From a virus, in the IMG/VR virus record IMGVR_UViG_3300035698_003810, positions 20,550-84,549 of that record: 64,000 bases of DNA; one strand, written 5' to 3'. Positions 33,205 through 51,006 of this stretch are shown one piece after another; position 1 is the stretch's first letter, and each line of letters opens with the position of its first letter. The translations under genes and the position numbers were made by a program. The notes beneath the pieces were generated by a model that was not told the origin of the DNA, ran no database searches, and was given only the letters and a program-made list of their open reading frames with translations.

Positions 33205-33946
33205 TATTTTTATTACGTGTGCAAAAAAAGATTACATTAAATTACCATATTGTATTGCTTCAATTGAAAGAAACATAGCTGATATTGATGAAATTCATAT
33301 TGCATCACCCACTGAAATTAAAATCGATGGTGTGATTTGGCATAATGAAAATGATATTTTGCATGTTGATAAAACAAAAATAAAACACAGACCAAATTGG
33401 GTGTTTCAACAATTGATAAAATTATTTCAAACCGTAACTAAAAACGATTTCTATTTGACTATTGATTCTGATACTATAATTAATAGACCATTGAAATTGT
33501 TTACTGATGAAGGTAAGCCAATTTTATATGCCGGGATTCAACAATACCATGCCCCATATTTTAAATTTATGAAAGAAGTTTTTAATTTGGATAAAGTTAT
33601 CAAAGAATCTTTTATTACAGATATGAATTTTTTTAATAGAAATATAATAAATGAAATGCTCGTTAATAACAATTATACAGTTGAATCATTTTTAGAAAAA
33701 TTATATGAAGTAACAAAACCAAGCGAATGTTATATTGGTGAGCCGGAACTGTATGGTAATTATGTTGTGGAACATCATATGGATATGTATACGATTAGAC
33801 AATTGAAAATGAAAATGTCTGGTAAAGAAATTAATAATGCTAATGATGTAGTTTGGTGTAATCAAGAAATTGAAACTGGTATTAAAGTTATGAAAAATCT
33901 TGATTATGATACATTCTCTATGCACTCATGGGTATTGGGGGATTAA
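33194..33946 (+). CDS. Glycosyltransferase-like protein (250 aa)
   Basis: The ATG at 33194 has AGGAG eight bases upstream; an ATG at 33188 is also possible. SIDIFITCAKKDYIKLPYCI begins a GT-A-like fold. YLTIDSDTIINRPLKLF carries the DSD metal motif, and EPELYGNYV resembles an acceptor-site segment. It looks like the DUF6492 type of phage and bacterial polysaccharide glycosyltransferases. It follows the methyltransferase with overlap and abuts the next gene. Confidence 0.7.
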   Translation: MSIDIFITCAKKDYIKLPYCIASIERNIADIDEIHIASPTEIKIDGVIWHNENDILHVDKTKIKHRPNWVFQQLIKLFQTVTKNDFYLTIDSDTIINRPLKLFTDEGKPILYAGIQQYHAPYFKFMKEVFNLDKVIKESFITDMNFFNRNIINEMLVNNNYTVESFLEKLYEVTKPSECYIGEPELYGNYVVEHHMDMYTIRQLKMKMSGKEINNANDVVWCNQEIETGIKVMKNLDYDTFSMHSWVLGD

Positions 33947-34801: not shown

Positions 34802-34802
34802 G

Positions 34803-36158
34803 GTGAATAGCATATGTTTGATTAATCCTCCATCACCATTTTTAATTGATGAGAAGGTATTTGTTTCAATTGGTATTTTAAGAGTAGCAACGTCATTAAT
34901 AGACCATTTGTATAATGCTGATATTTTAGATTTAGCGGGTATTAAAGATTGGAAAGATAAAATTGATAATATTATTTATAAATATGATATTGTTGGTATT
35001 TCATCAACTACTCCACAAATTCCTATAGTGACAAAGATTGCCGAATATATTAAATCCAAACATAATAAACAAGTTGTGTTAGGTGGCCCACATGCAACGG
35101 TTGTTCTTGGTGCATATAAAGAGAATCCGACAGGACGTGCGTTATTAGAACTCGATAGATTACAGAGGATATTCGATTATATAGTTTGTGGTGATGGTGA
35201 ATTCGTAATTTTAGATATAATGAGAGGACACAAGACAGGGATATTGGATAGTGAAACTAATCCTGATTGGTACTTGACAAATGAAAAATATGATTCATTA
35301 TCGGTTCCTATTCGTAGTTTAATTGATATAGATTCATATCATTATAAAATTGATGGCGTTAAATCTACTAATTTGATATGTCAAATGGGATGCCCGTTTG
35401 GATGTAATTTTTGTGGTGGAAGAAAATCTAAAACATTTAGACAAATAAGAACACGAAGTATTCCATTAGTTATTAAAGAAATAGATTATCTCTACCGTGG
35501 TTGGGGGTATACAGGATTTATGTTTTATGATGATGAATTGAATGTTAATGGAAAATTATTTCTTAATTTTTTAGATGAATTGATTAAATATCAAAATAAC
35601 AACAATGTTAATTTTAATTTAAGAGGATTCACACGTGCGGATTTATTGACACAAGAGCAAGCAGATAAAATGTATGAAGCAGGGTTTAAATGGCTTCTTA
35701 CTGGTTTTGAATCCGGTTCAGATAGAATGTTGTTAAATATGAATAAGAGAAATACCGTTGAAGATAATACAAATGCTTGTATGACTGCCAGATTTGCAGG
35801 ACTTAAAGTAAAGGCATTGATGTCTATTGGTCACCCGGGTGAGTCAAGTGAAACAATAAAAGAAACTAAAGATTGGGTTAAGATGGTTAAACCAGATGAT
35901 GTTGATGTTACAATAATATCAACATATCCCGGTACACCATATTATGATGATGTAACATGGGATGAAAATAAAAAGGTATGGAAATATATTAGTCCTAAAA
36001 CTGGAGATATTTTGTATTCTTTGGATGTAAATTATACAAAGGATTCTGTATTCTATAAGAGTGACCCGGACAGTTATGAATCTTTTGTCTTTACTGATAA
36101 TTTGTCATGTCAAGATTTAGTTGACGAAAGAAGGCAGTTGGAGAGGGAATTAAAATGA
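34803..36158 (+). CDS. B12-binding-type radical SAM protein
   Basis: 451 residues with a GTG start. Residues about 1-140 form a Rossmann-like cobalamin-binding-type domain (YDIVGISSTTPQIP, GGPHAT at 94-99), without the DxHxxG histidine. The radical SAM core follows, with Cys197, Cys201 and Cys204 (CPFGCNFC) to hold the 4Fe-4S cluster. FYDDELNVN and FESGSDRML are typical later motifs. Such enzymes methylate or rearrange unreactive carbons, often in sugar, lipid or peptide natural products. It is rare in phages and sits amid glycosyltransferases, so a sugar or lipid substrate is likely. Confidence 0.85.
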   Translation: MNSICLINPPSPFLIDEKVFVSIGILRVATSLIDHLYNADILDLAGIKDWKDKIDNIIYKYDIVGISSTTPQIPIVTKIAEYIKSKHNKQVVLGGPHATVVLGAYKENPTGRALLELDRLQRIFDYIVCGDGEFVILDIMRGHKTGILDSETNPDWYLTNEKYDSLSVPIRSLIDIDSYHYKIDGVKSTNLICQMGCPFGCNFCGGRKSKTFRQIRTRSIPLVIKEIDYLYRGWGYTGFMFYDDELNVNGKLFLNFLDELIKYQNNNNVNFNLRGFTRADLLTQEQADKMYEAGFKWLLTGFESGSDRMLLNMNKRNTVEDNTNACMTARFAGLKVKALMSIGHPGESSETIKETKDWVKMVKPDDVDVTIISTYPGTPYYDDVTWDENKKVWKYISPKTGDILYSLDVNYTKDSVFYKSDPDSYESFVFTDNLSCQDLVDERRQLERELK

Positions 36159-36979
36159 ATAAAGATTGGGTAAAGTCATTTAGTCGAGATGATTTTGTTG
36201 ATGGAGATGGGTTTGAAAATATTGCAAAAGACTTAGGAATAACATACACAGAAAGTCATAATTTAAAACATGTAATAGATAATGAAATTATTTTATCTCA
36301 TAATGGGGATGCATGTGTATTGCCAGAGGGTGTTAATATAATAAGAACAGGCGAATCAAGAGTTGGTATTGATTTTAATTGGTTAAATATTCCTGAAAAA
36401 TTAAAAGTATTATTCTCATTAAATGTTGACGTTAAGGATGATAGAATATATTATTTGCCAGTTGGGTTAGAAAGAAAACGGTGGAATCCCCAACAGAAAA
36501 AGCAGGAAAATTTATTCAATATGATGAATACAGATATCGAACCATCTAAATTGGTTTATTTGAATATAGCAGCGGGGACAAATATACAATCAAGACCTAA
36601 ATTAATTGAAGTAATGAAAGATAAATCTTGGTGTACAAATGATAATCGTGGTAATGGTTCTGATTATATGAATTTTATAACTAATATAAAAGAACACAAA
36701 TTTGTATTTTCACCTGATGGTAATTCATTAGAAGGTCATAGAACATGGGAAACATTATATTTGGGTAGAATACCAATCATAGAACGTCATGTGTTTACGG
36801 AATATTTTGCTGAACGCTTACCGTTACTTATTGTTGATAATTGGGAAGATGTTACTGAAGAATTTCTTAATGATAAATATAATGAAATGATAAATAAAGA
36901 GTGGGATTGGGATTTGTTAAAAAATTCATATTGGAAAACATATATAAGCGGAGTTATTGATAATGTTAAACAAAAATAG
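36155..36979 (+). CDS. Exostosin/GT47-like glycosyltransferase, copy 1
   Basis: 274 residues. The C-terminal half (FSPDGNSLEGHRTWETLYLG, then IPIIERHV and LLIVDNWEDVT) matches the nucleotide-sugar site of exostosin-type GT-B enzymes: a 'GN-x-x-x-x-HR-x-WE' stretch and a following P-I-x-E/x. It starts inside the stop of the radical SAM gene. The protein at 37628 is a clear paralogue, sharing DGDGFENIAK and the same C-terminal motifs. Confidence 0.75.
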   Translation: MNKDWVKSFSRDDFVDGDGFENIAKDLGITYTESHNLKHVIDNEIILSHNGDACVLPEGVNIIRTGESRVGIDFNWLNIPEKLKVLFSLNVDVKDDRIYYLPVGLERKRWNPQQKKQENLFNMMNTDIEPSKLVYLNIAAGTNIQSRPKLIEVMKDKSWCTNDNRGNGSDYMNFITNIKEHKFVFSPDGNSLEGHRTWETLYLGRIPIIERHVFTEYFAERLPLLIVDNWEDVTEEFLNDKYNEMINKEWDWDLLKNSYWKTYISGVIDNVKQK

Positions 36980-37628
36980 TATTGACGAAATTTATAAAAA
37001 ACTCGATATTCCTAAATATGATAAACCACTATTAGAATATAATAATGGTAATTGGAAATGGGAGAATAAAGATTTCTCAAGAGTACCAACTTTAATTGAA
37101 TTTAGAAAAATGGTTGATGAATTAAAATTATCATCTGAAAAAATGTTAGTTATAAATGGTACAGGAGACCCCGAATTAGAATTCATTCCAACTAAAGAAG
37201 TTAAACATGGTGTTTATATTCATGAACCGGAATTGTATGATTTGCATACAATGGATTTGGATGAAAAGGATTATGATTTTTTAATGTGTAATCAAACATT
37301 AGAACATGTTTATAATCCTTTTGTTGCATTAAAAACTATGAATAAACATTTGAGGATGGGTGGCTATTGCTACATTACAGTTCCTTGTAATAATATTCCT
37401 CATGATACACCGATGCATTTTTATACAGGATTTACAGCCGTTGGATTAGGAACCTTTTTTGTTGAAGGAGGATTTGAAATTATTAAGTTAGGACAATGGG
37501 GAAATTATAAGGCAGTTGAAACTATGTTTACAGATGATTGGGCAGACTATAGAAAATCAAGTTGGAATAATGAAGAGAAATGTCCCATAACAAGTTGGTG
37601 TTTAGGAAGAAAAATTGAGGAGGTATAA
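36963..37628 (+). CDS. SAM-dependent methyltransferase-like protein (221 aa)
   Basis: The ATG at 36963 has GGAG nine bases upstream. MLVINGTGDPELEFIP stands as a degenerate motif I. YDFLMCNQTLEHVYNPFVAL (about 103-122) is a clear motif IV of type-11 methyltransferases, and KHLRMGGYCYITVPCNNIPH is the post-motif strand. It lies between two paralogous glycosyltransferase genes and overlaps both, so all three should be co-translated. Likely a sugar methyltransferase. Confidence 0.7.
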   Translation: MLNKNSIDEIYKKLDIPKYDKPLLEYNNGNWKWENKDFSRVPTLIEFRKMVDELKLSSEKMLVINGTGDPELEFIPTKEVKHGVYIHEPELYDLHTMDLDEKDYDFLMCNQTLEHVYNPFVALKTMNKHLRMGGYCYITVPCNNIPHDTPMHFYTGFTAVGLGTFFVEGGFEIIKLGQWGNYKAVETMFTDDWADYRKSSWNNEEKCPITSWCLGRKIEEV

Positions 37629-38449
37629 TGGATTACAGGTGGTCAACATTTAGTCAAGATGATTTTATTGACGGTGATGGATTTGAAAATATTGCAAAGG
37701 AATTAGGAATTACATATTGTGAAGGTAGAGATATTAATGCTATAGATAACGAATATGTTTTATATCATAATGGTGATGCTTGTGTCTTACCTGTTGGTGT
37801 TGATAGAAGACCACTTGGTGAGCATCGAGGATATGATTTATTTTGGGAAAATATACCGGATAAATTAAAATTATTCTTTTCACAAAATGTTGATGTTGAC
37901 GATGACCGTATTGTGTGTTTACCTATCGGACTTGAAAGAAGCAGGTGGAAACAAATGTTTCGTGTTGATAAACATGAACGATTACTTAATATGATGACAC
38001 AAGATGTTGAAAAAAGTGGATTAGTTTATTTAAATGTCAACCCAACTACAAATCGTATATCAAGACCTAAATTAATTGAAATAATGAAAGATAAACCTTG
38101 GTGTACAAACGAACTTCGCCCGAATGGGTTTGAATATGATAACTATCTACATCAAATGAAATCACATAAATTTGTTTTCTGTCCAGATGGTAATGGAATA
38201 GATTGTCATAGAACATGGGAAGCACTTTATGTTGGTTCATATCCTATTGTAGAACGTCACGTGTATGCAGAAAAATTTGCAAAGTATCTTCCAATATTGG
38301 TAGTTGATAATTGGGACGATGTTACTGAAGAACTTCTTAATAAAACATATGGGGAGTTTTATAATACTTGGTGGGATTGGAATATGTTATCGATGTCTTA
38401 TTGGAAAAAGTTTATTACAGAAAAGGTGGAAGGTAATGATACGAACTAA
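37628..38449 (+). CDS. Exostosin/GT47-like glycosyltransferase, copy 2
   Basis: 273 residues. It parallels the protein at 36155 through its whole length: DDFIDGDGFENIAKELGITY, NVDVDDDRIVCLPIGLERSR, CPDGNGIDCHRTWEALYVGS and VVDNWDDVTEELL. The two differ enough to suggest different donors or acceptors. The start overlaps the stop of the methyltransferase, and its end overlaps a GT11-like gene. Soluble, no signal peptide. Confidence 0.75.
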   Translation: MDYRWSTFSQDDFIDGDGFENIAKELGITYCEGRDINAIDNEYVLYHNGDACVLPVGVDRRPLGEHRGYDLFWENIPDKLKLFFSQNVDVDDDRIVCLPIGLERSRWKQMFRVDKHERLLNMMTQDVEKSGLVYLNVNPTTNRISRPKLIEIMKDKPWCTNELRPNGFEYDNYLHQMKSHKFVFCPDGNGIDCHRTWEALYVGSYPIVERHVYAEKFAKYLPILVVDNWDDVTEELLNKTYGEFYNTWWDWNMLSMSYWKKFITEKVEGNDTN

Positions 38450-39143
38450 TTATATTGGTAGAGTTGGAAACAATATGTTTCAGTATGTATTCAATAGAAT
38501 GCTTGCTGAACGATGTAATCTTTACTTTGAAGAAACTATAACACATCCATATTGGAAAGATTGTTCATCTAAAAATTTTCCTATTGAAGTTATTCCGTAT
38601 AATAATGATGGAAAAGTTAAATTGAAACATGAAGATATGGTACAGACTGCCGGATATTATCAAGACCCCCGAATATATGATGCAAATACAAAACTAATAC
38701 GGTCGTTTTTTAAATATGATATAAATAAAAGAAATCACCAATCAGTAACAGCGCACATTAGATTAAAAGATTATTATGAATTTGGTAAAGAGGGTGTTGT
38801 GATACACCCGGAGTGGTACACTAAGATTTTTAAAATGTTGGGTTGTGATGCTGACTATGTAACATTGTATATTGTTTCCGATAATATCAATGATGCATAT
38901 ATGGATAATTTTAAAGAGTTTAATCCTAAATTTATATCTGGAACACCAAAAGAAGATTTTCAATTTATTATGAATTCAGATATAACTGTTGTTGGGAATA
39001 GTTCTTTTTCTTGGTGGGCATCATGGCTTAGTGATGCATCACAGATATATACATTCAAGCCTTGGATATATAGAGATGATAATAGAGAATATAATCTGTC
39101 TCGTATGGATAGGGCAATAAGAGTCGATGGAAAATTTTTATAA
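38436..39143 (+). CDS. GT11-like (alpha-1,2-fucosyltransferase-type) glycosyltransferase
   Basis: 235 residues from the ATG at 38436, which has GGAAGG just upstream. GRVGNNMFQY (8-17) matches the family start 'G-G-L-G-N-Q-M-F-Q-Y'. HIRLKDYY (107-114) matches HIRRGDY. IVSDNIND stands for the DDI motif, and NSSFSWWASWL (188-198) is the classic 'NSTFSWW' end motif. The protein is shorter than typical bacterial GT11 enzymes (near 290). It probably adds fucose or a similar deoxysugar to the glycan built by this island. Confidence 0.82.
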   Translation: MIRTNYIGRVGNNMFQYVFNRMLAERCNLYFEETITHPYWKDCSSKNFPIEVIPYNNDGKVKLKHEDMVQTAGYYQDPRIYDANTKLIRSFFKYDINKRNHQSVTAHIRLKDYYEFGKEGVVIHPEWYTKIFKMLGCDADYVTLYIVSDNINDAYMDNFKEFNPKFISGTPKEDFQFIMNSDITVVGNSSFSWWASWLSDASQIYTFKPWIYRDDNREYNLSRMDRAIRVDGKFL

Positions 39144-39156
39144 AGGAGTTAATGTT

Positions 39157-39726
39157 GTGAGAGAACAAGTTGAGGTAAATTTTAATAGAAGTCATCAGTT
39201 AGGACAAATGGGTGCCGATGAACGTGAGGCAATGTATAATCTTGTTATGGGGGTTAATCCAAAACATATATTTGAAATTGGTACATGGATGGGTGGTGGT
39301 AGTACATACATACTTGCATCAGCACTTTACAATTTGGATTGTGGTGGTAAATTACATACGGTTGAATCACATAAAGGTGCATTTAATCACGCAATACGTT
39401 TTTATGGTACATATGCCGATTTAATGCCGTTGGAACCATATGTTGATTTTAATTTAGGAAGTAGTACTGACATTTATGGTAAGATGTTAAAGGATTATGA
39501 ATCAATTGAGATGGTTCTTTTTGATGGTGCTGATGATGACCAGAGTACATTAGATGAATGGAATTTATTTAAAGATAAATTTAAAACTGGTACTATTGTT
39601 TTATGTCATGATTGGAAGACTAAAAAGGCTGATTTCATCAAGGATTTTTTATTAAATGAAGATGAATGGCAAAATATATTCATTATGGATACACAAACTG
39701 GTTTTGCTGCATTTAAAAAGAAATAA
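39157..39726 (+). CDS. Class I methyltransferase (methyltransferase-24 type)
   Basis: 189 residues from the GTG at 39157, which follows AGGAG by eight bases. FEIGTWMGGGSTYILA (39-54) is motif I, LHTVE (66-70) supplies the acidic ribose-binding residue, and EMVLFDGADDDQSTLDEW carries motif IV. CHDW near 150 resembles the metal/His end of cephalosporin-hydroxylase-like sugar enzymes. It is the last gene of the sugar island. Confidence 0.72.
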   Translation: MREQVEVNFNRSHQLGQMGADEREAMYNLVMGVNPKHIFEIGTWMGGGSTYILASALYNLDCGGKLHTVESHKGAFNHAIRFYGTYADLMPLEPYVDFNLGSSTDIYGKMLKDYESIEMVLFDGADDDQSTLDEWNLFKDKFKTGTIVLCHDWKTKKADFIKDFLLNEDEWQNIFIMDTQTGFAAFKKK

Positions 39727-40622: not shown

Positions 40623-41528
40623 ATGGGTTTTTTAAATGAGTATTATGGTGACACGTGGAGAGATAAAATAGTAACTCACAGAACACCAACTGGTAGAACG
40701 TCAAGGGTGAAAGTTAGAAGTCTTCCTCCAGATGAACAGCTTAAGTATAATCCAAATAGATTTAAAAGAACTAAATCTGATACCAAAATGACAAAAGATG
40801 ATTATGATAAAATTAAATCTTCTGATGATAAAATCAGAACGGTGGATTTTTATATGGCATCACGGGATTTAGATGTTGTTGAAGATGTTAGAAATAATAT
40901 TAAAGAAGGTAAATTGATAATGGCAACAACAGATAGTAAAAATGTTATTGATTTATTCAATGATGATTTGGATGTTGTTAAGATGTTAAATGTTCCAGTA
41001 ACGGCAATCAAAAAATATCTGGATGTTGATATTGAAGATGTTGAATCTATAAGTGATTTGGAATTTAAAGATGCTGGAACTGAGGATGAAGAAAAGTTAT
41101 ATGAACTTAGTACGTTTTCAGATGCAACAATATTCCTTATTGACTTATATCCATATGTAAAGGATATCGAAATCAAATTAGATAAACATGATGACGAAGA
41201 AGATAACTTTGATGAATTGAAAGCTGAAGGTAACGGTATGTTCAAAGGATTTTATATGAATGAAGATGCCGGAAGACTCATAACAGAGATGCCTCATCTT
41301 GTAATTGGTGATAACACATATGATTTTTATATGGAAAAAGATGGTTGGGTTGATAGATTAGTAAATATAATTAAAACCGGAAATCATAGTATTCATGATA
41401 TATTAGAACCATTTTACGGTATTTATAAGGGATTTTTCCTAAAGAGATTTGAAAATTTGGAATCATGGGAACAAGATAAGTTGAAAAAGTACACACCACT
41501 CGAATTCAGATTAATCATGGGGATATAA
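40623..41528 (+). CDS. Hypothetical protein with FLNE leader; possible head-packaged protein
   Basis: 301 residues, body not recognised. It opens MGFLNEYYGD, like the MSILNE leaders of genes further on. The first 60 residues after that are basic (HRTPTGRTSRVKVR), and the remainder is strongly acidic and helical, ending FENLESWEQDKLKKYTPLEF. It abuts the ADP-ribosyltransferase-like gene by one base. Inferred membership in the packaged set rests on the leader and location only. Confidence 0.5.
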   Translation: MGFLNEYYGDTWRDKIVTHRTPTGRTSRVKVRSLPPDEQLKYNPNRFKRTKSDTKMTKDDYDKIKSSDDKIRTVDFYMASRDLDVVEDVRNNIKEGKLIMATTDSKNVIDLFNDDLDVVKMLNVPVTAIKKYLDVDIEDVESISDLEFKDAGTEDEEKLYELSTFSDATIFLIDLYPYVKDIEIKLDKHDDEEDNFDELKAEGNGMFKGFYMNEDAGRLITEMPHLVIGDNTYDFYMEKDGWVDRLVNIIKTGNHSIHDILEPFYGIYKGFFLKRFENLESWEQDKLKKYTPLEFRLIMGI

Positions 41529-42533
41529 ATGAACTCATTTACAACACATTATTTTAATGAAGACTTGATAAGTGAGATGCTTATCAAAGGAAAAAGAAAA
41601 GAAGATGGTCAACAAGAGATTATGGCATTCAATAAATGGATTTATTTTCTTGATGATGAACACCCACAATGGGAAGAAATGAAAAAAGAGATTGTTGATG
41701 CTTTAGAATTGGAAGAATATGATTATGAAGATGAAGATGCATATGAATTCAAAGCAAATATTAGTGAACGTGTGCCAGATATTTTAATAGGTAACATAGA
41801 TGGTAATGATTTAAATATTGAAACACGTGGTTCATTTAAACTTGACCCACAATCTTCTATTCTTGTAAAGAAAGTTGTTAATCAATTAGGAATTGACAAC
41901 GTAGAATATATGTCGGGTGACGGTGAGTCTGAAAATGTTTCCAAATGGGATGTTAAAGGTGAGATTCCAGATGTTGCATATCATGGAACAACAACTGAAT
42001 ATTTTGATGAAATAGTAAAACTTGGTATACGTCCGGGAAGTAAAGAATCTAATTGGATTAAACAACGTATTAGTCATCCAGATAAAGTATTCTTTGCAAC
42101 TAATTTTGATGAAGCAATGAACCATGCTATTATGACTGCAAATAAACAGGGTGGGTATCCACTGGTTATTGAGTTTAAGATTCCTAATAAAGATGCAATT
42201 ATTCCTGATTATGATGTTGAAGTTCAAACTGGAGAGAAGGGTGATGATGTATTGATTAATTTATATTATGATTACATTAATAAAAGATATGATGATGGTG
42301 TTAAAACTCATAAGAACAAACCAATGTCTGTAAGTAAAGAGTTTGGTGTATATGGATACATGGGTAACATAATGCCTAAGAATATACAATCAGTTTGGGT
42401 TGCAATGGAAGAACCATCAGAAGTATATAACAAAAGTCAATTTACAGAATACGATGGCTCTGACATAGATGAACTAAAACGAGAATTAAATCCAGAAGAC
42501 TATTGGGAAGATGAAGATGAAGATGAAGAATAA
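41529..42533 (+). CDS. ADP-ribosyltransferase-superfamily-like protein with leader
   Basis: 334 residues. The leader FTTHYFNEDLISEM has two candidate x-x-E cut sites (FNE, ISE). The C-terminal half carries YHGTT (151-155), IVKLGIRPGS (162-171) and VFFATNFDEAMNHA (187-200). This order fits the H-Y-type fold shared by KptA and diphtheria-toxin-like transferases: His of HGT, then a second strand with F-A-T. T4 packages and injects the transferase Alt, giving a precedent. The target cannot be told; KptA-type RNA phosphate transfer is an alternative. Confidence 0.62.
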   Translation: MNSFTTHYFNEDLISEMLIKGKRKEDGQQEIMAFNKWIYFLDDEHPQWEEMKKEIVDALELEEYDYEDEDAYEFKANISERVPDILIGNIDGNDLNIETRGSFKLDPQSSILVKKVVNQLGIDNVEYMSGDGESENVSKWDVKGEIPDVAYHGTTTEYFDEIVKLGIRPGSKESNWIKQRISHPDKVFFATNFDEAMNHAIMTANKQGGYPLVIEFKIPNKDAIIPDYDVEVQTGEKGDDVLINLYYDYINKRYDDGVKTHKNKPMSVSKEFGVYGYMGNIMPKNIQSVWVAMEEPSEVYNKSQFTEYDGSDIDELKRELNPEDYWEDEDEDEE

Positions 42534-42597: not shown

Positions 42598-43299
42598 ATG
42601 TCAATTTTCAATGTGCTTAATTTATTATTAGAAACATCAGAAATTAAAGGTTATGATTTAAAAAAATATTATGATGATTTTAATAAAAAATATTTTGATG
42701 ATGAATTACCAGAGATTCCCCTTGTATATGTTAATAGTAGAAAATCTGGTGGTTGGGTTGATGCCACTATAAATAGAAAGACAGATGAAATAACAATAAA
42801 AAGATTAGCAATATCAAAATATTTTAAACGTGATGAAGATAATTTCATTCAAATAATGCTTCACGAAATGATACATGTGTATTTATTTCATAAACATATA
42901 GTTGAACGAGAACAGCATGGGGTTGAGTTTAAAAGAAAATCCCGTGACATTGAAAAACGCAGTGGAGTGAAAATACCAGAAAGTGATAGTATTGCGTCTG
43001 TTGTATCCGATGATGTCAAGTCAAAAGAATTCGATGTTATTTTTATTGACACTAAAAAATTAGAAAATAAATATAGTATTGGTGTATTTAAATCTGGATT
43101 TTTTGATAAGTTATTTAAATCAGGTGAACATAGTCTTGAAAGATTAAAACGTAGATATGAATATCCAATTTTTATACTAAAATCTGATGACAGAGTATTA
43201 TTAAAATACCCAACTCAACGAAGTAAAAATAAAATTTCTTTTTATCATATGAATAATGAAGATGCTGAAAGAATAATTGATAATTATAAAAATAGTTAA
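42598..43299 (+). CDS. SprT-like zinc metallopeptidase
   Basis: 233 residues. The leader MSIFNVLNLLLETS ends in LLE|T, like the MSILNE group. LKKYYDDFNKKYFDDELP (21-38) is the usual SprT opening. The zinc site is HEMIH (89-93) with His108 (EQHGVEF) as third ligand. The last 100 residues are basic and could bind DNA. In bacteria and eukaryotes SprT/Spartan-type proteases cut DNA-bound proteins. An injected copy could clear host proteins from phage DNA, or protect it; this is inference. Confidence 0.8.
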   Translation: MSIFNVLNLLLETSEIKGYDLKKYYDDFNKKYFDDELPEIPLVYVNSRKSGGWVDATINRKTDEITIKRLAISKYFKRDEDNFIQIMLHEMIHVYLFHKHIVEREQHGVEFKRKSRDIEKRSGVKIPESDSIASVVSDDVKSKEFDVIFIDTKKLENKYSIGVFKSGFFDKLFKSGEHSLERLKRRYEYPIFILKSDDRVLLKYPTQRSKNKISFYHMNNEDAERIIDNYKNS

Positions 43300-43441: not shown

Positions 43442-44833
43442 ATGAAATTGAATGATTGGGAACGGAAAATACAAGATAACAAAGAATTGTCTGTTGCTAT
43501 TGAAATTATAGAAATTATAGTGGATATCGGTTATGATGCATATATTGTGGGTGGTTTCGTTAGAGATTTGATGCTTGATATTGAATCTGCTGATATAGAT
43601 ATTTCTTCAAATGTGACTGAATTGAAATTGTCTGAATTTTTTGATATAATAGATATAGGGCAGTCAAAAAAATTTGGCGTATTTGTTATTAAATATAAGG
43701 GATTTGTATTTGAGATTGCACAATATCGTTCTGACGTTTATGACGAGATTGCAGGTAAAGGTGCAGATAAAGTGAAATTGGTACAAACTTTTAAAGATGA
43801 TGCAGCAAGGCGCGATTTAACAATAAATTCTTTTGGGTTGGACTACAAAGGTAATGTTGTTGATTATTTTGGTGGTTTGTATGACATTGAACATAAAATT
43901 ATCAACACGGTCGGTAGTGCATATGATAGATTTGAAGAGGATTATATTAGAATGCTTAGATGTTTGAGATTTTCAGTTAAACTTGGATTTAGAATACATG
44001 ATGGAGTTTTTGAAGCAATAAAGGATAATGCTCATAACATAGTTAATGTTGCACCAGAAAGAATATTAAAAGAACTTAACAAAATGGCATCACTATCCGG
44101 TAGTAAATTTGCAGATGCAATAGAGTTATTGGATGAATCTGGGTTATTGTTATATATATTACCAGAAGTTATTTGGATGAAGCCATTGAAACACAACCTA
44201 AAATTTCATCCAGAAGGTGGGTCAACGGTATATGGTCATATAATCGAGGCATTAAGATGTAACAATATTCCAAATAAATTGATAAATTGGGCAATACTAT
44301 TTCATGACATTGGAAAATTAACGTCATACACTAAAGATGGTAATGGTCATCATTATTATAAACACCATTTGGAAGCCGGTGATATAATTGATAGTATTAC
44401 ACATAGACTTAAATTTGATAATGTTACAAGAGATGTGTGTAAATTTGTAGGATTGAATCATATGGTGCTTCATGATTTTTTAAAAGTAAAGAAGAGTGTT
44501 GCTATGAGATTGATTGATGATAACAATTGGGATGTGTTGTTACAAGCGTCATATTGTGACTCTAAGTGCCGTGGAGATGACCTTTTTAGTTATGATGAGT
44601 GGCAGAGGATATTAGACCGTGTAGAAAGCCTTAGAGAGTGGTTTAAAGGCAAGCAAGCTACTGATGCTATACGTAAGGTAGTTAATGGTCAAATGGTCAT
44701 GAGAGTACGTCCTGACGTTAAACCATCACCTGAGATGGGTAGAATCATAGAAGCTACTGTAGAATGGGTAATGGATAATGAAATTGATATAGAGGATATA
44801 CAATCGATAGAAGAGATAATGAGAACGGTTTAG
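43442..44833 (+). CDS. cca: CCA-adding tRNA nucleotidyltransferase with HD domain
   Basis: 463 residues from the ATG at 43442, after AAGGAG; an earlier in-frame start has no ribosome site and lies too close to the promoter. GGFVRD (37-42) and DIDIS (51-55) form the class II nucleotidyltransferase head site. ARRDLTINSFGLD and EEDYIRMLRCLRFS follow in the family order. FHDIGK (287-292) is the HD phosphohydrolase motif. It would repair or finish 3' CCA ends of tRNAs, which can matter when host defences cut tRNAs. It stands as a single early transcription unit inside the packaged-protein cluster. Confidence 0.92.
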   Translation: MKLNDWERKIQDNKELSVAIEIIEIIVDIGYDAYIVGGFVRDLMLDIESADIDISSNVTELKLSEFFDIIDIGQSKKFGVFVIKYKGFVFEIAQYRSDVYDEIAGKGADKVKLVQTFKDDAARRDLTINSFGLDYKGNVVDYFGGLYDIEHKIINTVGSAYDRFEEDYIRMLRCLRFSVKLGFRIHDGVFEAIKDNAHNIVNVAPERILKELNKMASLSGSKFADAIELLDESGLLLYILPEVIWMKPLKHNLKFHPEGGSTVYGHIIEALRCNNIPNKLINWAILFHDIGKLTSYTKDGNGHHYYKHHLEAGDIIDSITHRLKFDNVTRDVCKFVGLNHMVLHDFLKVKKSVAMRLIDDNNWDVLLQASYCDSKCRGDDLFSYDEWQRILDRVESLREWFKGKQATDAIRKVVNGQMVMRVRPDVKPSPEMGRIIEATVEWVMDNEIDIEDIQSIEEIMRTV

Positions 44834-44896: not shown

Positions 44897-44904
44897 TATA
44901 AATA
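44897..44904 (+). promoter_or_regulatory. T4-type late promoter box
   Basis: Exact TATAAATA seven bases after the terminator. It should start the late transcript that carries the second part of the packaged-protein cluster. Confidence 0.6.
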
Positions 44905-44922: not shown

Positions 44923-45229
44923 ATGATATGTTTTGAAGTGATGACAAACCTTGAGCTTTTGGTTGATAAATGGAAAAGCATCGGTGTTGAATTAAGAATC
45001 ATTGAATATGAAGACCATTACTATTTGGCAAAGATTGTAGTACCAGAAGAAAAAAGAAATCAAGGTATAGGTACACAGATATTGAAAGAACTCAAAGAGT
45101 ATGCTGGTGAGAAGGAACTAAACCGTTCTCATTATCTCTTCTTATTGTATACCGACAATAGGTTATGGTGCATCATCAAAAAGAAGATTAAAGAATTTTT
45201 ATAAAAAGAATAATATATTTATAGAATAA
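44923..45229 (+). pseudogene. GNAT acetyltransferase gene broken by a frameshift
   Basis: The first frame (44923-45204) gives a GNAT N-terminal half with VVPEEKRNQGIGTQIL, the acetyl-CoA loop. After about 45122 that frame loses its sense. The next frame (codons from 45122) continues with CIPTIGYGASSKRRLKNFYK and stops at 45229. The intact paralogue at 46329 reads LTPSKDFGATSIPRLIKFYK in the same place, so the two halves belong to one gene. The break lies at about 45122-45140. A sequencing error, programmed shift or true decay cannot be told apart here. Unlike its paralogue it lacks the MSILNE leader. Confidence 0.72.
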
Positions 45230-45244
45230 AATGAGGATTATATA

Positions 45245-45706
45245 ATGTCAATCTTAAATGAAATCAACTCACAGTTATATGAAGCAATCAAAAAAGTTAA
45301 AGTTTTAGAAAGTGAAGACCTCGCCAAATCATGTTTTGGATTAGTAAAGTATAATAATGGACTTTACAAATCAGACAAACAAAAATGGTTCATAGAAAAT
45401 AAAATCAAAGCTGGAAAAGAAATTGAACAAAATGTTCCTGATGCCACTGTTGGTGTTGTTAAAACTGATTTCAATAGCACATATGGTATTGTATGGAAAT
45501 ATGTTTTAGATGGTAAAGGTGTTGTTCAACAATTAAAATTAAAGTGGAAATTGGAAAGAGGTAAATCAAAAGAACAGATTGATAGAGATTATAGGGGTAT
45601 GACTTTTAAACAGCGTGAACAAAGTGCAGGTTTACAGGGTGAAGAAATGCAGGATAAATGGGTGTTCCAAGGAACTACGGTTGTTTGGGAAAGAGAGGAT
45701 GTGTAA
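45245..45706 (+). CDS. Hypothetical protein with MSILNE leader (153 aa)
   Basis: The leader MSILNEINSQLYEA ends in LYE|A, a T4-prohead-protease-like site. The body is basic and beta-rich (TYGIVWKYVLDGKGVVQQLK, then WKLERGKSKEQIDRDYRGMT) and not recognised. The repeated Trp and Lys could bind nucleic acid. The following gene begins two bases later with the same leader. Confidence 0.55.
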   Translation: MSILNEINSQLYEAIKKVKVLESEDLAKSCFGLVKYNNGLYKSDKQKWFIENKIKAGKEIEQNVPDATVGVVKTDFNSTYGIVWKYVLDGKGVVQQLKLKWKLERGKSKEQIDRDYRGMTFKQREQSAGLQGEEMQDKWVFQGTTVVWEREDV

Positions 45707-46315
45707 ATGTCAATGTCAATCTTAAATGAAGTAGAACAAGTTATAGATGAAAGTAGAATTCCAAAAACATTAGTAGTGGTTGACATTCAACCATCATACG
45801 AAGATTATGTTCGGTATATGCTTGATGATTTTATTGAACACCTAAATGAAAATGAATACAACAAGATTGTATATCTATTCAATGGCCCGGATTTAGGAAT
45901 GGAAGGCTTCGATGAGATTTACGAATGGCTACTTGATAATGGATTGGATGAGGCAGTTCACATTGACCAAACATTCGAAAAGAATTATGCTTTCTTCAGA
46001 GATGTTATGGATGAAGGTATTCTTGATGATGATGAGATGATTGAACTTGGAAAATACATGATTGAAAATGATGTCAGTGATGTTAGAGATATGAGTGAAG
46101 AAGATTGGGATGCTCTTTCATTTGATGTTGACAAGAAAGAAGAACTACAATTAGAAAATCATGGATTTTATATTCCTGACGTTGCAGATGAATTAAAACA
46201 TTTGGATAATATCGTATTAGTCGGTGGTGGTGAAACTGAATGTTTACGTGAGGTTGAACTACTTCTTGACATGTTAGGAAAACCATATGACCGTATAGAG
46301 AATTTAATATACTAA
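45707..46315 (+). CDS. Isochorismatase-like-fold protein with MSILNE leader
   Basis: 202 residues; the first MS may be an extra start, since a second ATG follows six bases later. The leader MSILNEVEQVIDES ends in IDE|S. The body begins TLVVVDIQPSYEDYV, like the VIDMQ strand of cysteine-hydrolase/isochorismatase folds. It ends NIVLVGGGETECLREVELLL, with a Cys in the place of their nucleophile. The middle is longer and very acidic. The link is by pattern and is not secure. Substrate unknown. Confidence 0.45.
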   Translation: MSMSILNEVEQVIDESRIPKTLVVVDIQPSYEDYVRYMLDDFIEHLNENEYNKIVYLFNGPDLGMEGFDEIYEWLLDNGLDEAVHIDQTFEKNYAFFRDVMDEGILDDDEMIELGKYMIENDVSDVRDMSEEDWDALSFDVDKKEELQLENHGFYIPDVADELKHLDNIVLVGGGETECLREVELLLDMLGKPYDRIENLIY

Positions 46316-46328
46316 TAAGGATGTGTAA

Positions 46329-46700
46329 ATGTCAATCTTAAATGAAATATCATTATATGAAGGTGTTTATGATGTAATACAAAAATGGAAAAGTGATGGT
46401 ATTGATATATCATTAATTGCCAGTGGTGATAAATATTTAAAACTTGATAAAATAGTAATACCAAAAAGTTTACGTGGTGATGGTGTAGGTTCGAAGGTAA
46501 TGAATGATATTATAAACTTAGGTGATACAATGAAAAGAACAATTACATTAACACCATCTAAAGATTTTGGTGCAACGTCTATTCCTCGTTTAATAAAGTT
46601 TTATAAACGTTTTGGTTTTATTGACAACAAAGGTAAAAATAAAGATTTTGATATAAATTATTCTATGTATAGATTACCAGAGGGAACAAATGAAGTTTAA
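46329..46700 (+). CDS. GNAT acetyltransferase with MSILNE leader
   Basis: 123 residues. The leader MSILNEISLYEG (1-12) ends in LYE|G. The body has GNAT motif A, IVIPKSLRGDGVGSKVM (about 43-59), and the late segment LTPSKDFGATSIPRLIKFYK before a final YKRFGF. It is the intact paralogue of the broken gene at 44923. It would acetylate a small molecule or a protein amine using acetyl-CoA; the target is unknown. Its 3' end overlaps the HAD gene. Confidence 0.75.
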   Translation: MSILNEISLYEGVYDVIQKWKSDGIDISLIASGDKYLKLDKIVIPKSLRGDGVGSKVMNDIINLGDTMKRTITLTPSKDFGATSIPRLIKFYKRFGFIDNKGKNKDFDINYSMYRLPEGTNEV

Positions 46701-47196
46701 AGAGCATTATTTGAAAGAAGAAAACGGGTTTGAAGTTTACTGTGATATGGATGGTTGCCTAACCGACTTCAAGAAAGCATATGCAAAGTACTCTGATATA
46801 GATATGGATGAAGCAGAGAGAAGATATACAGCATCTTCAGAGAAGTTTTGGGAGCCTGTCAATGATGCTAAAGTAAAATTCTGGTCTGAGATGGAATGGA
46901 TGCCCGATGGTAAACAGTTATGGGAGTACATAACACCACATAATCCAACAATCCTTACGTCTCCTTCAAAGGGAACTGCTTGTCCAAAAGGTAAAACAAT
47001 TTGGGTAAAAAGAGAACTTGGTGAAAAAACTCCAGTGATAATTGAACGTGACAAATATAAATACTCAGGAGATAACAAAATACTCATAGATGACACAGAA
47101 CAGAAGATTACAGATTGGGTTGACAAAGGTGGAATAGGAATTCTTCACACGTCAAGCGAAGATACAATCAAACAATTCAAGGAAATAATGGGATAA
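46690..47196 (+). CDS. HAD-superfamily 5'-nucleotidase-like phosphatase
   Basis: 168 residues. The leader KFKEHYLKEENG has LKE in the place of a cut site. DMDG at 19-22 (VYCDMDGCLTDF) gives the two catalytic Asp of HAD enzymes. LTSPS is motif II and ILIDDTEQK (about 131-139) is motif IV. The size and the DMDG form fit the phage 5'(3')-deoxyribonucleotidase-like group. If packaged and injected it could act on nucleotides or on phospho-ends early in infection. Confidence 0.78.
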   Translation: MKFKEHYLKEENGFEVYCDMDGCLTDFKKAYAKYSDIDMDEAERRYTASSEKFWEPVNDAKVKFWSEMEWMPDGKQLWEYITPHNPTILTSPSKGTACPKGKTIWVKRELGEKTPVIIERDKYKYSGDNKILIDDTEQKITDWVDKGGIGILHTSSEDTIKQFKEIMG

Positions 47197-47627
47197 TGTC
47201 AATCTTAAATGAATTTAACAATCTATTATGTGAAAGTGAGTACCAATCGGTGCATCAAGCTGACTATGAAGTGGATTATCACCCACCATTATATGATTTA
47301 CATAAGACAGGGATTGCACCGGATGATATGTATAACAATCCAATGATATATTCTCAAACTGACAAACAAGCAGGTGCTGAATCTGCGGAAGTAATTCAAT
47401 CAGTGTATGAAAAACCAGATGAGATTGTTACGATATATAGGGGTGTTCCTGATAACGTGAATGATATTAACGATGGTGATTGGGTTACGCTGTCATTGAC
47501 ATATGCAGAAGGCCATGTCGAAGGTGAAGAGAACATGCATGTGATTTCTAAAGAAGTTCCTGCAAAGCAAGTTATATGGCAAGGTGATGATATTAATGAA
47601 TTTGGTTATTTTATAAAAGGGGAATAA
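47196..47627 (+). CDS. ADP-ribosyltransferase-like protein with MSILNE leader
   Basis: 143 residues. The leader MSILNEFNNLLCES ends in LCE|S. The body has IYRGVP (80-85) with Arg82, GDWVTLSLTYAEGH (94-107) with the S-T-S-type TLS, and DDINEFGYF (131-139) with Glu135. This is the R-S-E order of arginine-type ADP-ribosyltransferases, in the small form common in phages. T4 Alt, which is packaged and injected, provides a functional precedent. The start overlaps the stop of the HAD gene. Confidence 0.7.
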   Translation: MSILNEFNNLLCESEYQSVHQADYEVDYHPPLYDLHKTGIAPDDMYNNPMIYSQTDKQAGAESAEVIQSVYEKPDEIVTIYRGVPDNVNDINDGDWVTLSLTYAEGHVEGEENMHVISKEVPAKQVIWQGDDINEFGYFIKGE

Positions 47628-47631: not shown

Positions 47632-48972
47632 ATGAACTTAATAGAAAGTGCAAATCAATGGATGGATGAAGACTACATAACTGAGATTAGTCAAGCTGCC
47701 ACAAAGAAAGCAATTGATAAATTTGTTAAGCAAGGTGCCGATGAAGAAGAAGCCACAGCAGTTGTAAATCAATTTAATGATATGACAGCTAAAAATAAAC
47801 TTAAAGGTGTCAATATCTTTGGTTTAAAGTTTGATGATTTGAAAAAGGAAATAGATAAAGCTGGTCAAGTAAAATCTAAATCAGAAAAAGTAAAGATAAT
47901 AAGAGACAAAGAAACTGAATTTGTATTTGAAAATGATAATGTTCTTGTTATATCTCCTAAGTCACACGATTCATCTTGTAAATATGGTGCTAACACTCAA
48001 TGGTGTACTACAATGGAAGATGAGCATTATTGGAAAGATTATAGACAAAAGGGAGATAAGTTATATTACATACTCCCTAAAGATGGTTCGGATAAAACCG
48101 CTGTTAAAGTTAGTAGAGATGGTAGTAAAGAAATATATAATGCTGTAGATGATGAAATTGGAATAGATGGGTTAGAAGATGTGTTGGAAGAATATGAAAT
48201 TGATGAAGGTATATTTGACGAAATGGATGATGAAGAATTTGCAGAAATCAATCAGTTGACAGATGATGAAAAACATGAGTATGCAGCGGGGTTATTAAGA
48301 GATTTGGGTGTATCACCAGAGGATGCTGAATATGATAATGCATTAGCAAATATAGTTCAAGGAATAGAACAAAAATATGATGAATATAATTATGGAGATT
48401 TTAATATTAGGGATATGATTGAAAATGATTTTGGTGATTTGTCATATACTATAGAAGACGCATTAGAAAAACTCAACGACAAATATGGAATAGACAAAGA
48501 TAGTATAAAAAATAAAATAGGTTTAACTTATGATGCGATTACTGATGGTGAAGATTTAACTTATTATATAGATAGTGAAAGTGACCATTGGGCTGTTGAT
48601 GACGTAAAGCAAAGAATTAAAGATGGTGATTATGAGATGTATAACGTGAATGAACTTAAATTTGAAACGTTTATGGACTTTGTTGGTTTTGATTTTCAGG
48701 GTATGTTAGATGGCGAACAAGAAGACAAAATAGAAAAACGATTGGCATATCAATATAACGAAGATTTTGAAGCATTCGAATCTTTTTATGATGATTTTGT
48801 TGAAGAGTTAAAGTCGTATTTGGGTGTTGATGAAGAAATATCAAAAGAACTATCAAAACAGGTAAAAGAATTAATAGACAAAGTATCTAAAGTGGAATAT
48901 GGTAAACAAGGACATCCCAAATTAGATTTGGAATCTATGACATTAGATTTTTATAATAAATATTTTGGATAA
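47632..48972 (+). CDS. WCT-motif protein with capsid-targeting-like leader (446 aa)
   Basis: The leader LIESANQWMDEDYITE has sites at MDE and ITE. A compact domain (about 85-170) carries SPKSHDSSCKYGANTQWCTT (108-127), followed by YWKDYRQKGDKLYYILPK. I recall this 'YG-x-x-T-x-WCT' pattern from other phage proteins of unknown function. Invariant-looking Cys116, Cys125 and His112 suggest an enzyme or metal site. The remaining 270 residues are acidic and helical. Function unknown. Confidence 0.55.
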   Translation: MNLIESANQWMDEDYITEISQAATKKAIDKFVKQGADEEEATAVVNQFNDMTAKNKLKGVNIFGLKFDDLKKEIDKAGQVKSKSEKVKIIRDKETEFVFENDNVLVISPKSHDSSCKYGANTQWCTTMEDEHYWKDYRQKGDKLYYILPKDGSDKTAVKVSRDGSKEIYNAVDDEIGIDGLEDVLEEYEIDEGIFDEMDDEEFAEINQLTDDEKHEYAAGLLRDLGVSPEDAEYDNALANIVQGIEQKYDEYNYGDFNIRDMIENDFGDLSYTIEDALEKLNDKYGIDKDSIKNKIGLTYDAITDGEDLTYYIDSESDHWAVDDVKQRIKDGDYEMYNVNELKFETFMDFVGFDFQGMLDGEQEDKIEKRLAYQYNEDFEAFESFYDDFVEELKSYLGVDEEISKELSKQVKELIDKVSKVEYGKQGHPKLDLESMTLDFYNKYFG

Positions 48973-48984: not shown

Positions 48985-49629
48985 ATGATGGATAAATATT
49001 TTACAGAAAGGGCAAATTATTTTATGTATACAGATATACAATCTGATAATATAAAATTGGAAGCTGAAGAAGGAAAAACGATAACTATCAATTTTAAAAA
49101 ATCGGATGTTAATGTCGATACATTAGATGAGATAGATGCAAAATTGGTTCGTGCTGGTCTTGTTGGTACTCCAGATTTTACCGATATGACATATACAATT
49201 AAAGCAGAACATTTAGATAGATTCATTGACATTATGAAAAACTCAACTTATGATTATACATATGAAAATGAAATCAAAGAGGATGAAACTGAATTGTTTT
49301 CACTTGCTGAAGATTTGGTTAGTGGTCTTACATATGAACAACTTATAAATACAGTTGAAGCGAATGAACAAGTTAGGGATGAAGATGCAGTTGAAAAGGT
49401 ATTCGTAGAAGAACTCAGTAGAATTATTGAAGAAGCCAGAGAAAATTTTGAATTAAATAAAGACAAAATAATGGCAGGACTTGGTGGTGAAGAGGAAACA
49501 AATGAAGGTATGTTTTCAAAGGGCAAAAGTAAAGAAGAACTCATAGCAAAAAGTATGGTAAGACTTATTAAAGATAAGGGTGTTGACGTTAAAACAGTTA
49601 TTACTTTGATGATGGACAAATATAGATAA
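48985..49629 (+). CDS. Hypothetical protein with YFTE leader (214 aa)
   Basis: Starts at one of two ATGs three bases apart; AAGGAG precedes both. The leader DKYFTERANYFMYTD shares YFTE with the gene at 50218 and RAN-x-F-M with the one at 49646. The body has a beta-rich N-terminal half and a helical acidic half, ending in a Lys-rich helix (KEELIAKSMVRLIKDKG). No family recognised. Confidence 0.5.
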   Translation: MMDKYFTERANYFMYTDIQSDNIKLEAEEGKTITINFKKSDVNVDTLDEIDAKLVRAGLVGTPDFTDMTYTIKAEHLDRFIDIMKNSTYDYTYENEIKEDETELFSLAEDLVSGLTYEQLINTVEANEQVRDEDAVEKVFVEELSRIIEEARENFELNKDKIMAGLGGEEETNEGMFSKGKSKEELIAKSMVRLIKDKGVDVKTVITLMMDKYR

Positions 49630-50217: not shown

Positions 50218-51006
50218 ATGGATTTTTATGATTACTACTTTACAGAAGGTCATGAGTGTGACGAGGAAGTTTACGAAATAGATTTAAATGATTTAACTGG
50301 TGAGCGGTTAACTTGTTTGTCTGAAATTGCTAAATCTCAACTCATGACTAAGACTGATGAAGGAAGAGTAAACAGAGCAATAAAAGATATAAAAACACAC
50401 CGAAGAAATATTCGTGTGCAGGAAGATGCAGAAGGAAATGAAATCATCGAATATGATTTCAGAGCAAACCCTTCTTGTGAATTCCGTAATCATTGGGGAT
50501 ATGTTATTCATGATGGTAATGATGTGAAACAAGTGTTCTGTGATTGTATGGATTTCTTTTATCGTCTTTATGCTCCTATGGTACGAGCGGGTTTAGCTAC
50601 ATGGGACATCCCGGCAAAATACAAAAAGAGAATGGAAAAGTTTATTAAGCCACACAACCGTTCGTGGACGGATGAAACTAATCCTACTGGTAAACTATAT
50701 GTGTGTAAACATATATATGCTCTTCTTCAAACATTTGTTGGCCCGGATATTAAAGCAAGACCTCTTAAAGGTGTTAAGATTCCTGCGGATGTCAAGGCAC
50801 GTATTGCTAAAGATAGAGCACAAGCTAAAGCTGATAAGGAAGCACCACCAGAATCTGGTGATAAGCAAGATGGTAATAAACATATTGGTGCTGATGATGC
50901 ACTTGACCAAGACAAAGTAAGTGCAGATATGGAAAAGAGAAAAGCTAAAGAAGCAGAAAAGAAAGAAAAAGACACTGAAGAAGACGAAGAAAAGAAAGAT
51001 AAATAA
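50218..51006 (+). CDS. SWIM zinc-finger protein with YYFTE leader
   Basis: 262 residues. The leader MDFYDYYFTEGHE has FTE|G. The SWIM pattern C-x-C...C-x-H is seen as Cys108, Cys110 (VFCDCMDF), Cys163 and His165 (VCKHIYALL). SWIM domains bind DNA or proteins. The last 60 residues are Lys/Glu repeats, probably disordered. It precedes a small helix-turn-helix-like gene by one base. Confidence 0.65.
   Translation: MDFYDYYFTEGHECDEEVYEIDLNDLTGERLTCLSEIAKSQLMTKTDEGRVNRAIKDIKTHRRNIRVQEDAEGNEIIEYDFRANPSCEFRNHWGYVIHDGNDVKQVFCDCMDFFYRLYAPMVRAGLATWDIPAKYKKRMEKFIKPHNRSWTDETNPTGKLYVCKHIYALLQTFVGPDIKARPLKGVKIPADVKARIAKDRAQAKADKEAPPESGDKQDGNKHIGADDALDQDKVSADMEKRKAKEAEKKEKDTEEDEEKKDK

What the first reader, a model, noticed from the sequence alone, without database searches (positions are those of the whole stretch)
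45245..47220. MSILNE leader copied onto at least four unrelated proteins
MSILNE starts the proteins at 45245, 45707 (after MS), 46329 and 47196, and MSIFNV at 42598 is a near variant. After 4-8 further residues each reaches LYE|A, IDE|S, LYE|G, LCE|S or LLE|T. Even the DNA is close to identical (ATGTCAATCTTAAATGAA). Such sharing of the first 18 bases by different genes suggests recent copying of a delivery tag onto new cargo.
Basis: seen in the sequence. Interest (0 to 1): 0.8.

Follow-up and report, generated by a model that had tools for sequence, protein, structure and literature searches.

The report
Shared capsid-targeting leader on phage cargo
A phage related to T4 puts the same short tag at the front of several unrelated proteins, very probably the address label and cut site that loads them into the phage head so they enter the host cell with the DNA; the trick is known from T4, but here it is applied to a larger, swappable set of enzymes.

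Summary
Confirmed: four genes of one cluster (45245, 45707, 46329, 47196) open with an identical 19-nt tract (A-ATGTCAATCTTAAATGAA, MSILNE). It is the only DNA word of 16 nt or more present four times in the 84.5-kb record. The bodies are unrelated. All four copies use the rare Ile codon ATC, so descent from one DNA copy is likely. Each then reaches an (L/I)xE site at residues 11-13.
Best reading: a T4-type capsid targeting sequence (CTS) plus prohead-protease site. The record encodes T4 head machinery: gp20, Peptidase_S77 gp21, gp22-like scaffold, and gp23 with an aligned LFTE|A site. A T4-type late promoter precedes the cluster. T4 ipII and ipIII themselves share 32 identical starting nucleotides on unrelated bodies. 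In relatives leaders swap: the same body carries different leaders (nucleotidase, tRNA nucleotidyltransferase, 45707 body) and the same leader class sits on different bodies. In phage Atu_ph07 a similar leader array lies inside a gene cluster rich in MS-detected virion proteins.
Not shown: packaging, cleavage or injection. The mechanism is known; leader class, cargo set and swapping are new detail. Overall: a well-supported new variant of the T4 internal-protein system.

The parts
44897..44904 (+). T4-type late-promoter-like TATAAATA, 26 nt before the first gene of the cluster
   Evidence: 36 copies on + strand vs 7 on - in the record; many lie 39-67 nt before head and tail genes (gp22, gp23, sheath)
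44923..45204 (+). leaderless GNAT-like protein, paralog of 46329 (natural leaderless control)
   Evidence: Pfam Acetyltransf_1 1.4e-6; blastp to 46329 2.6e-9
45245..45283 (+). leader MSILNEINSQLYE| of the 153-aa protein 45245-45706 (body unknown)
   Evidence: no Pfam hit, no PDB hit
45245..45706 (+). predicted packaged cargo 1, unknown orphan body
45713..45751 (+). leader MSILNEVEQVIDE| (gene starts at 45707 as MSMSILNE)
45707..46315 (+). predicted packaged cargo 2, unknown alpha/beta body (VVDIQP); homolog in G002 carries the other leader class, MIHFEKHYFAE
   Evidence: tblastn 4e-21 to L095
46329..46361 (+). leader MSILNEISLYE|
46329..46700 (+). predicted packaged cargo 3, GNAT of the kind found in DarB-like and polyvalent proteins
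   Evidence: phrog_10691 (3925-aa family) 6.7e-25; hits to DarB-like antirestriction proteins
46690..46719 (+). leader of the second class, MKFKEHYLKE|
46690..47196 (+). predicted packaged cargo 4, 5'(3')-deoxyribonucleotidase-like HAD protein
   Evidence: phrog_2643 2.2e-21; NT5C 0.0011
47196..47234 (+). leader MSILNEFNNLLCE|
47196..47627 (+). predicted packaged cargo 5, 'ParB C-terminal domain' family protein; VH7D homolog starts MKTYTEFLSE, close to the T4 CTS
   Evidence: phrog_2579 3.8e-30
42598..42633 (+). near-variant leader MSIFNVLNLLLE| of a SprT-like metallopeptidase (42598-43299)
   Evidence: Pfam SprT-like 2.6e-11; the L020 SprT homolog starts MSILNE
40623..41528 (+). probable further cargo, MGFLNE start; orthologs start MDFLEHYILTE, MNDFQFFCLLTE, MKFAMFYEQE
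41529..42533 (+). probable further cargo, KptA/ART-like, start MNSFTTHYFNE
   Evidence: phrog_11974 3.8e-29; PTS_2-RNA 0.061, weak
43442..44833 (+). tRNA nucleotidyltransferase / poly(A) polymerase family, leaderless here but leader-tagged in G002, G003 and G004
   Evidence: PolyA_pol 2.3e-24
47632..48972 (+). probable further cargo (MNLIESANQWMDEDYITE); G001 ortholog starts MSILDNMKELLE
48985..49629 (+). probable further cargo, (M)MDKYFTE| start
50218..51006 (+). probable further cargo, MDFYDYYFTE| start

Best explanation
MSILNE plus the next 5-7 residues is a T4-type capsid targeting sequence. Late in infection the tagged proteins are made from one + strand gene run behind a T4-type late promoter. 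Their N-terminal tag binds the gp22-like scaffold core and draws them into the prohead. The gp21-like S77 prohead protease then cuts after (L/I)xE (LYE|A, IDE|S, LYE|G, LCE|S), frees the bodies and lets the propeptide leave; DNA is packaged around them and they enter the next host with the DNA. The bodies are host-takeover or anti-defence enzymes (GNAT, nucleotidase, ParB-C/ART-like, SprT). The tag behaves as a detachable module: bodies gain, lose and exchange tags, and in this record one DNA copy was spread over four genes. Shown by sequence: identity, unrelated bodies, machinery, (L/I)xE boundary, leader swaps. Inferred: packaging, cleavage, injection and cargo function.
For: 1. Machinery in the same record: Peptidase_S77 gp21 (4.3e-23), T4 portal (6e-107), Gp23 (1.6e-79), T4_CASP scaffold (7e-10), Terminase_6. 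The MCP propeptide end GRELFTE|ASDG aligns with T4 gp23 GSFLTE|AEIG. 2. T4 precedent in DNA: ipII and ipIII share the first 32 nt (MKTYQEFIAEA) on unrelated bodies (L128). CTS role, length (10-19 aa) and processing are established for T4 (PMC9026906, PMC3012670). 3. Position rule: T4 CTS Y4-x-x-F7-I8-x-E10 and clade leaders F3-x-x-Y6-L7-x-E9 (MSFKKYLKE) or L7-x-x-Y10-L11-x-E13 (MTILNELENYLKE) share the same spacing. Such a core in the first 20 residues occurs in 13 of 91 genes vs 2.8% of internal windows, p=9e-6; also enriched in G002 and G004 (p=.002.003), marginal in G003 and G005 (.04), not in G001. 4. Leader swaps: nucleotidase MKFKEHYLKE| (window), MKFEEYYLKE| (G002), MGILEQIGLFE| (G003), MSILNEIEKYFKD| (G004); 45707 body MSILNEVEQVIDE| vs MIHFEKHYFAE| (G002); nucleotidyltransferase untagged here (M-KLNDWE) vs MRFEKYYFQE|TKLNNWD (G003); GNAT tagged and untagged in the window. 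5. Arrays in relatives: five MSFKxYLxE-type genes plus one MSILNE gene in L013; ten MxFxEYY-type genes in G002; nine MSFK-type genes in G003. 6. Codons differ between relatives while the peptide is kept. 7. Late promoter. 8. The Atu_ph07 array of M[RK]WxQLTE| genes is CDS 53-63 by my count, inside the CDS 31-76 cluster where 29 proteins were detected in virions by MS (PMC6102473). 9. The cargo GNAT type is shared with DarB-like proteins, and P1 DarB is packaged through an N-terminal signal (PMC9024508).
Against: No proteomic or N-terminal data exist for this uncultivated phage. MSILNE is not the T4 CTS sequence and has no aromatic at the T4 targeting positions 4 and 7 (except F7 in 47196). The exact cut site is ambiguous, since ILNE is itself an LxE ending at residue 6. 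Some relatives with MSILN[ED]-like starts lack a clean (L/I)xE (L027, L097, L102), and the G004 nucleotidase has FKD, where T4 data say Asp blocks cutting. The record G001 (MCP 90%) shows no general N-terminal enrichment; its contig starts inside the homologous cluster (47632 ortholog at base 86), so the rest may be missing. Which Atu_ph07 array proteins were detected could not be read (supplement not available).
Confidence: 0.87

Rival explanations
1. The shared 18 nt is an RNA or translation element (ribosome loading, operator, start-region codon choice), and the peptide is incidental.
For: DNA identity is perfect over 19 nt including the base before ATG, ends at codon 6, and two copies share 11 more upstream bases around the ribosome-binding site. 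The record has a T4 RegA-like translational repressor, which in T4 binds near start codons (own knowledge).
Against: Relatives keep the peptide with other codons: ATGAGTATTTTAAACGAT, ATGACGATACTAAATGAG, ATGTCAATTCTTAACGAG. Orthologous bodies swap to a different leader of the same peptide pattern, and (L/I)xE is kept just before the body. The Atu_ph07 leader is kept with many synonymous codons.
Confidence: 0.05
2. The leader is simply inherited: the proteins are diverged paralogs or fragments of one ancestral gene.
For: Genes are adjacent and co-directional; two GNAT paralogs lie in the cluster.
Against: No body homology among the four leader genes by blastp; distinct PHROG assignments (GNAT, ParB-C, none, none). 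The GNAT paralog of 46329 lacks the leader. 45707 and 46690 have orthologs with other leaders.
Confidence: 0.03
3. The leader brings the proteins to another place, for example a phage compartment, the membrane or a tail part, not into the head.
For: The target is not tested; T4 CTS data cover only the T4 scaffold.
Against: No long hydrophobic stretch in the leader; the site pattern resembles the site in the record's own gp23; similar leaders occur on genes of the head module near gp23 (record positions 8325, 8727, 9036); T4 ipII/ipIII use the same layout.
Confidence: 0.05

Closest known systems
T4 internal proteins IPI, IPII, IPIII and their capsid targeting sequence (MKTYQEFIAE|)
   Same: Short N-terminal leader identical in DNA on unrelated bodies (ipII/ipIII 32 nt), ending in an (L/I)xE site; gp21, gp22, gp23 homologs in the same record; bodies diverse, leader conserved (PMC3012670, PMC9026906).
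   Different: Leader sequence MSILNE-phi-x-x-phi-L-x-E is longer and mostly not aromatic; several leader classes coexist in one genome; cargo are recognisable enzymes in a cluster; leader swaps are seen on orthologs.
T4 Alt (packaged ADP-ribosyltransferase, MELITE start)
   Same: Short propeptide with ITE at residues 4-6, enzyme cargo ejected into the host; 41529 and 47196 are possibly ART-like.
   Different: No sequence homology to Alt was detected; ART identity of 47196 is unproven (no Pfam hit, poor model).
P1 Dar system / polyvalent proteins
   Same: Head-packaged anti-defence enzymes; the N-terminal 30 residues of DarB suffice for packaging (PMC9024508); the cargo GNAT is related to one found in DarB-like proteins.
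   Different: Dar proteins share no common leader by BLAST (PMC9024508); here domains are separate small proteins, each with its own tag.
phiKZ-like SPN3US gp53/gp54
   Same: Identical 15-residue N-termini on diverged head proteins (PMC5694885).
   Different: Those are paralogs (34% identity) with propeptides over 100 residues and a different (S80-related) protease.

Membership tests
T4-type capsid targeting sequence / internal protein system | short (about 10-19 aa) N-terminal propeptide ending at (L/I)xE | tested here: met
   11-13 residues, LYE/IDE/LYE/LCE; cutting itself not shown
T4-type capsid targeting sequence / internal protein system | same leader on non-homologous bodies | tested here: met
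T4-type capsid targeting sequence / internal protein system | S77 gp21 protease, gp22 scaffold and gp23 with matching site in the same phage | tested here: met
T4-type capsid targeting sequence / internal protein system | late expression with head genes | tested here: inconclusive
   TATAAATA at 44897 before the cluster; promoter activity not tested
T4-type capsid targeting sequence / internal protein system | T4 targeting residues (aromatic at 4 and 7) and processing residues 8 and 10 | tested here: inconclusive
   spacing phi-x-x-phi-[LI]-x-E is kept, aromatic in the MSFKxYLxE and MxFxEYYLxE classes, mostly aliphatic in the MSILNE class
T4-type capsid targeting sequence / internal protein system | protein present, cleaved, in the virion and ejected | not testable with these tools
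   needs virion proteomics; indirect support from the Atu_ph07 virion cluster
P1 Dar / polyvalent proteins | large multidomain polypeptide | tested here: not met
   cargo are separate ORFs of 123-446 aa

The most novel reading that the evidence does not exclude
T4-superfamily giant phages use a genome-readable address code: a few interchangeable leader classes (MSILNE-L-x-x-Y-L-x-E and MxFxEYYLxE) mark a whole set of injected enzymes, including tRNA repair and nucleotide enzymes, and tags are spread between genes by short DNA copying. Different classes may load different core sites, amounts or times.
Probability: 0.3. Interest if true: 0.78.

Novelty: new variant of a known kind. Interest (0 to 1): 0.6.

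Why it matters
Which proteins a phage injects with its DNA is known for only a handful of phages. A leader that can be read from sequence would let the injected set be predicted across uncultivated T4-like giant phages, and it points to unknown proteins (45245, 45707) as likely early host-takeover or anti-defence factors. Documented tag swapping on orthologs makes the idea of a modular delivery tag testable.

Tried and rejected
Close DNA relatives of the cluster in named phages: only one short local match. Body searches of 47196, 45245 and the DNA ligase in viral contigs: no relatives. AlphaFold of 45707 (single sequence, pLDDT 64) and PDB fold search: no significant match, E 0.05 at best. AlphaFold of 47196: pLDDT 37.5, not used. 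PDB sequence search of 47196 and 45245: none. Pattern hits in L007-L012, L014, L015, L019 judged internal Met codons or chance short ORFs. ART identity for 47196 and the Atu_ph07 array considered, but Pfam gives no hit, so kept only as a lead. Paralogy of bodies, and an RNA element as sole cause, were rejected. In G004 the MNFREHYFTE family is partly true paralogs, so it is not counted as independent evidence of tag sharing; the same holds for the Atu_ph07 YRGM proteins.

Full report
What is there. The window is bases 20550-84549 of an 84,549-base viral record. ATGTCAATCTTAAATGAA starts four ORFs on the + strand at 45245, 45713 (inside the ORF starting at 45707, MSMSILNE), 46329 and 47196. With the preceding A it is a 19-nt identity, and it is the only word of at least 16 nt found four times in the record. 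MSIFNV at 42598 is a weaker variant. Identity ends abruptly after codon 6. The genes at 45707 and 46329 share 11 further bases upstream (AGGATGTGTAA).

More than chance? Yes. Shuffles give 0.70 matches at up to three mismatches, while the observed four are exact, all at ORF starts, within 2 kb. Ile is ATC in all four, a codon used for 10.8% of Ile; four independent codings would be identical with probability 2.6e-5 (genome usage) or 1.6e-4 (start-region usage). This favours descent from one DNA copy, by copying or later homogenisation, over convergence. A purely nucleotide-level constraint is unlikely because relatives keep the peptide with other codons.

Bodies. 46329 is a GNAT of the type fused into DarB-like and polyvalent proteins. 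47196 belongs to the 'ParB C-terminal domain' family phrog_2579. 45245 and 45707 have no convincing family. 46690, sitting between leader genes, is a nucleotidase-like HAD protein with a different leader, MKFKEHYLKE. 42598 is SprT-like. With leaders removed, the four share no homology; the only significant pair is 46329 with the leaderless GNAT 44923.

Machinery. The record holds the T4 head set: portal, S77 prohead protease, T4_CASP scaffold, Gp23. The MCP has GRELFTE|ASDG where T4 gp23 has GSFLTE|AEIG (the T4 site is known). MCP identity to the best-ranked named phages, cyanophage gp23s, is 33-35%, so this is a divergent member of the T4 superfamily; whether it belongs to the 'Far-T4' group (PMC4360716) was not tested. 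TATAAATA, the T4 late promoter core, is found 36 times on + and 7 on -, often 39-67 nt before head and tail genes, and once (44897) right before the cluster.

T4 comparison. In T4 itself ipII and ipIII share the first 32 nt (MKTYQEFIAEA) on unrelated bodies. Their leader is the capsid targeting sequence, 10-19 residues, cut by gp21, with targeting at residues 4 and 7 and processing at 8 and 10 (PMC9026906). A review states that T-even internal proteins are diverse with only the CTS conserved (PMC3012670).

Relatives. An MCP search of viral contigs gave 38 loci, including records of 224, 264, 254, 124 and 169 kb (G001-G005). N-terminal families on different genes are common: ten MxFxEYY genes and four MSFxxYL genes in G002, nine MSFK-type genes in G003, five MSFK-type genes in G004. 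L013 has a run of MSFKKYLKE, MSFKQYLTE, MSFKEYIRE, MSFKKYLKE, MGFKEYLKE genes followed by MSILNEIEEAVDKMLLTE. The leaders share the spacing phi-x-x-phi-[LI]-x-E of the T4 CTS. This core within residues 2-20 is present in 14% of G000 genes against 2.8% of internal windows (p=9e-6), and enriched in G002 and G004. G003 and G005 are marginal and G001 is not enriched.

Leader swaps. Orthologous bodies carry different tags. Nucleotidase: MKFKEHYLKE|E (window), MKFEEYYLKE|E (G002), MGILEQIGLFE|S (G003), MSILNEIEKYFKD|K (G004). 45707 body: MSILNEVEQVIDE|S versus MIHFEKHYFAE|R (G002, 4e-21). 47632 body: MNLIESANQWMDEDYITE versus MSILDNMKELLE (G001). tRNA nucleotidyltransferase: untagged M-KLNDWE here, MRFEKYYFQE|TKLNNWD in G003, MRFSTFYTTHFLLE|A in G004, MRFDDFYEFAVYMNE|A in G002. 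A head-module protein: MILEDLEKYISE|D here, MTILNELENYLKE|D, MTILNEMEKYLTE|D and MGILNELEKYMIE|S elsewhere. The 47196 homolog in Vibrio phage VH7D begins MKTYTEFLSE, nearly the T4 CTS. The tag therefore behaves as a detachable module with its putative cut site at the body boundary.

Independent experimental hint. In Agrobacterium phage Atu_ph07 a GNAT plus YRGM-protein array opens with M[RK]WxQL[TN]E| or MRLFQLLE|, encoded with varied synonymous codons. By counting CDS (gp70 primase as calibration) it is CDS 53-63, inside the CDS 31-76 cluster in which 29 proteins were detected in virions by mass spectrometry (PMC6102473). Which ones were detected could not be read.

Limits. Packaging, cleavage and injection are inferred. 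The cut position (after residue 6 or 11-13) is open. MSILNE lacks the aromatic residues of the T4 CTS; some relatives with similar starts lack a clean site. Cargo functions are family-level guesses; 45245 is an orphan.

Noticed in passing
window 13517-14808: Three neighbouring small tail-region proteins share a DDxxxxRFT-like N-terminal motif (MAGLIDDKDKNRFTRQ, MAIGSRIDDILLSRFTKR, MPKYVDDMKKNRFT).
   Followed up: no
whole record; e.g. window 17127, 21471, 44897: T4-type late promoter core TATAAATA is strongly strand-biased (36 + vs 7 -) and placed 39-67 nt before many structural genes.
   Followed up: partly
window 43442-44833: tRNA nucleotidyltransferase/poly(A) polymerase family enzyme is untagged here but carries a capsid-targeting-like leader in three relatives; a leader-bearing kinase-like gene (MRFEEHYDEQPILLMTIGIPGSGKSTW) occurs in G002, suggesting injected RNA repair.
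   Followed up: partly
window 26646-28133: 495-aa very acidic, repetitive protein (ELDE and lysine-rich repeats) with an MDFLNYLSNYE start, next to a RegA homolog (26089); relatives in G002, G003, G004 and G005; possible prohead core protein.
   Followed up: no
window 28615-39726: Cluster of glycosyltransferase-, radical-SAM- and methyltransferase-like ORFs in a late region (families judged by eye, not searched).
   Followed up: no
G005 151703-153800 (L118): Six adjacent short proteins all begin MKIR[MT]GFVSNSSS[SA]S[FY] with differing bodies, another shared N-terminus array.
   Followed up: no
G005, nine sites (12547 to 168065): Nine near-identical MCNSASFIVTQNDVLFSKYSDSHEDIISENKLND proteins dispersed on both strands of one 169-kb record.
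   Followed up: no
L020 1733-4714: Three genes of a 45.6-kb contig share an M..I[KR][ILV]TExQ...L[VI][NE]E leader beside a SprT gene that starts MSILNE; a further leader class in another phage group.
   Followed up: no
window 56844-57758: Patatin-like phospholipase (6.8e-22); G001 has a similar 307-aa ORF.
   Followed up: no
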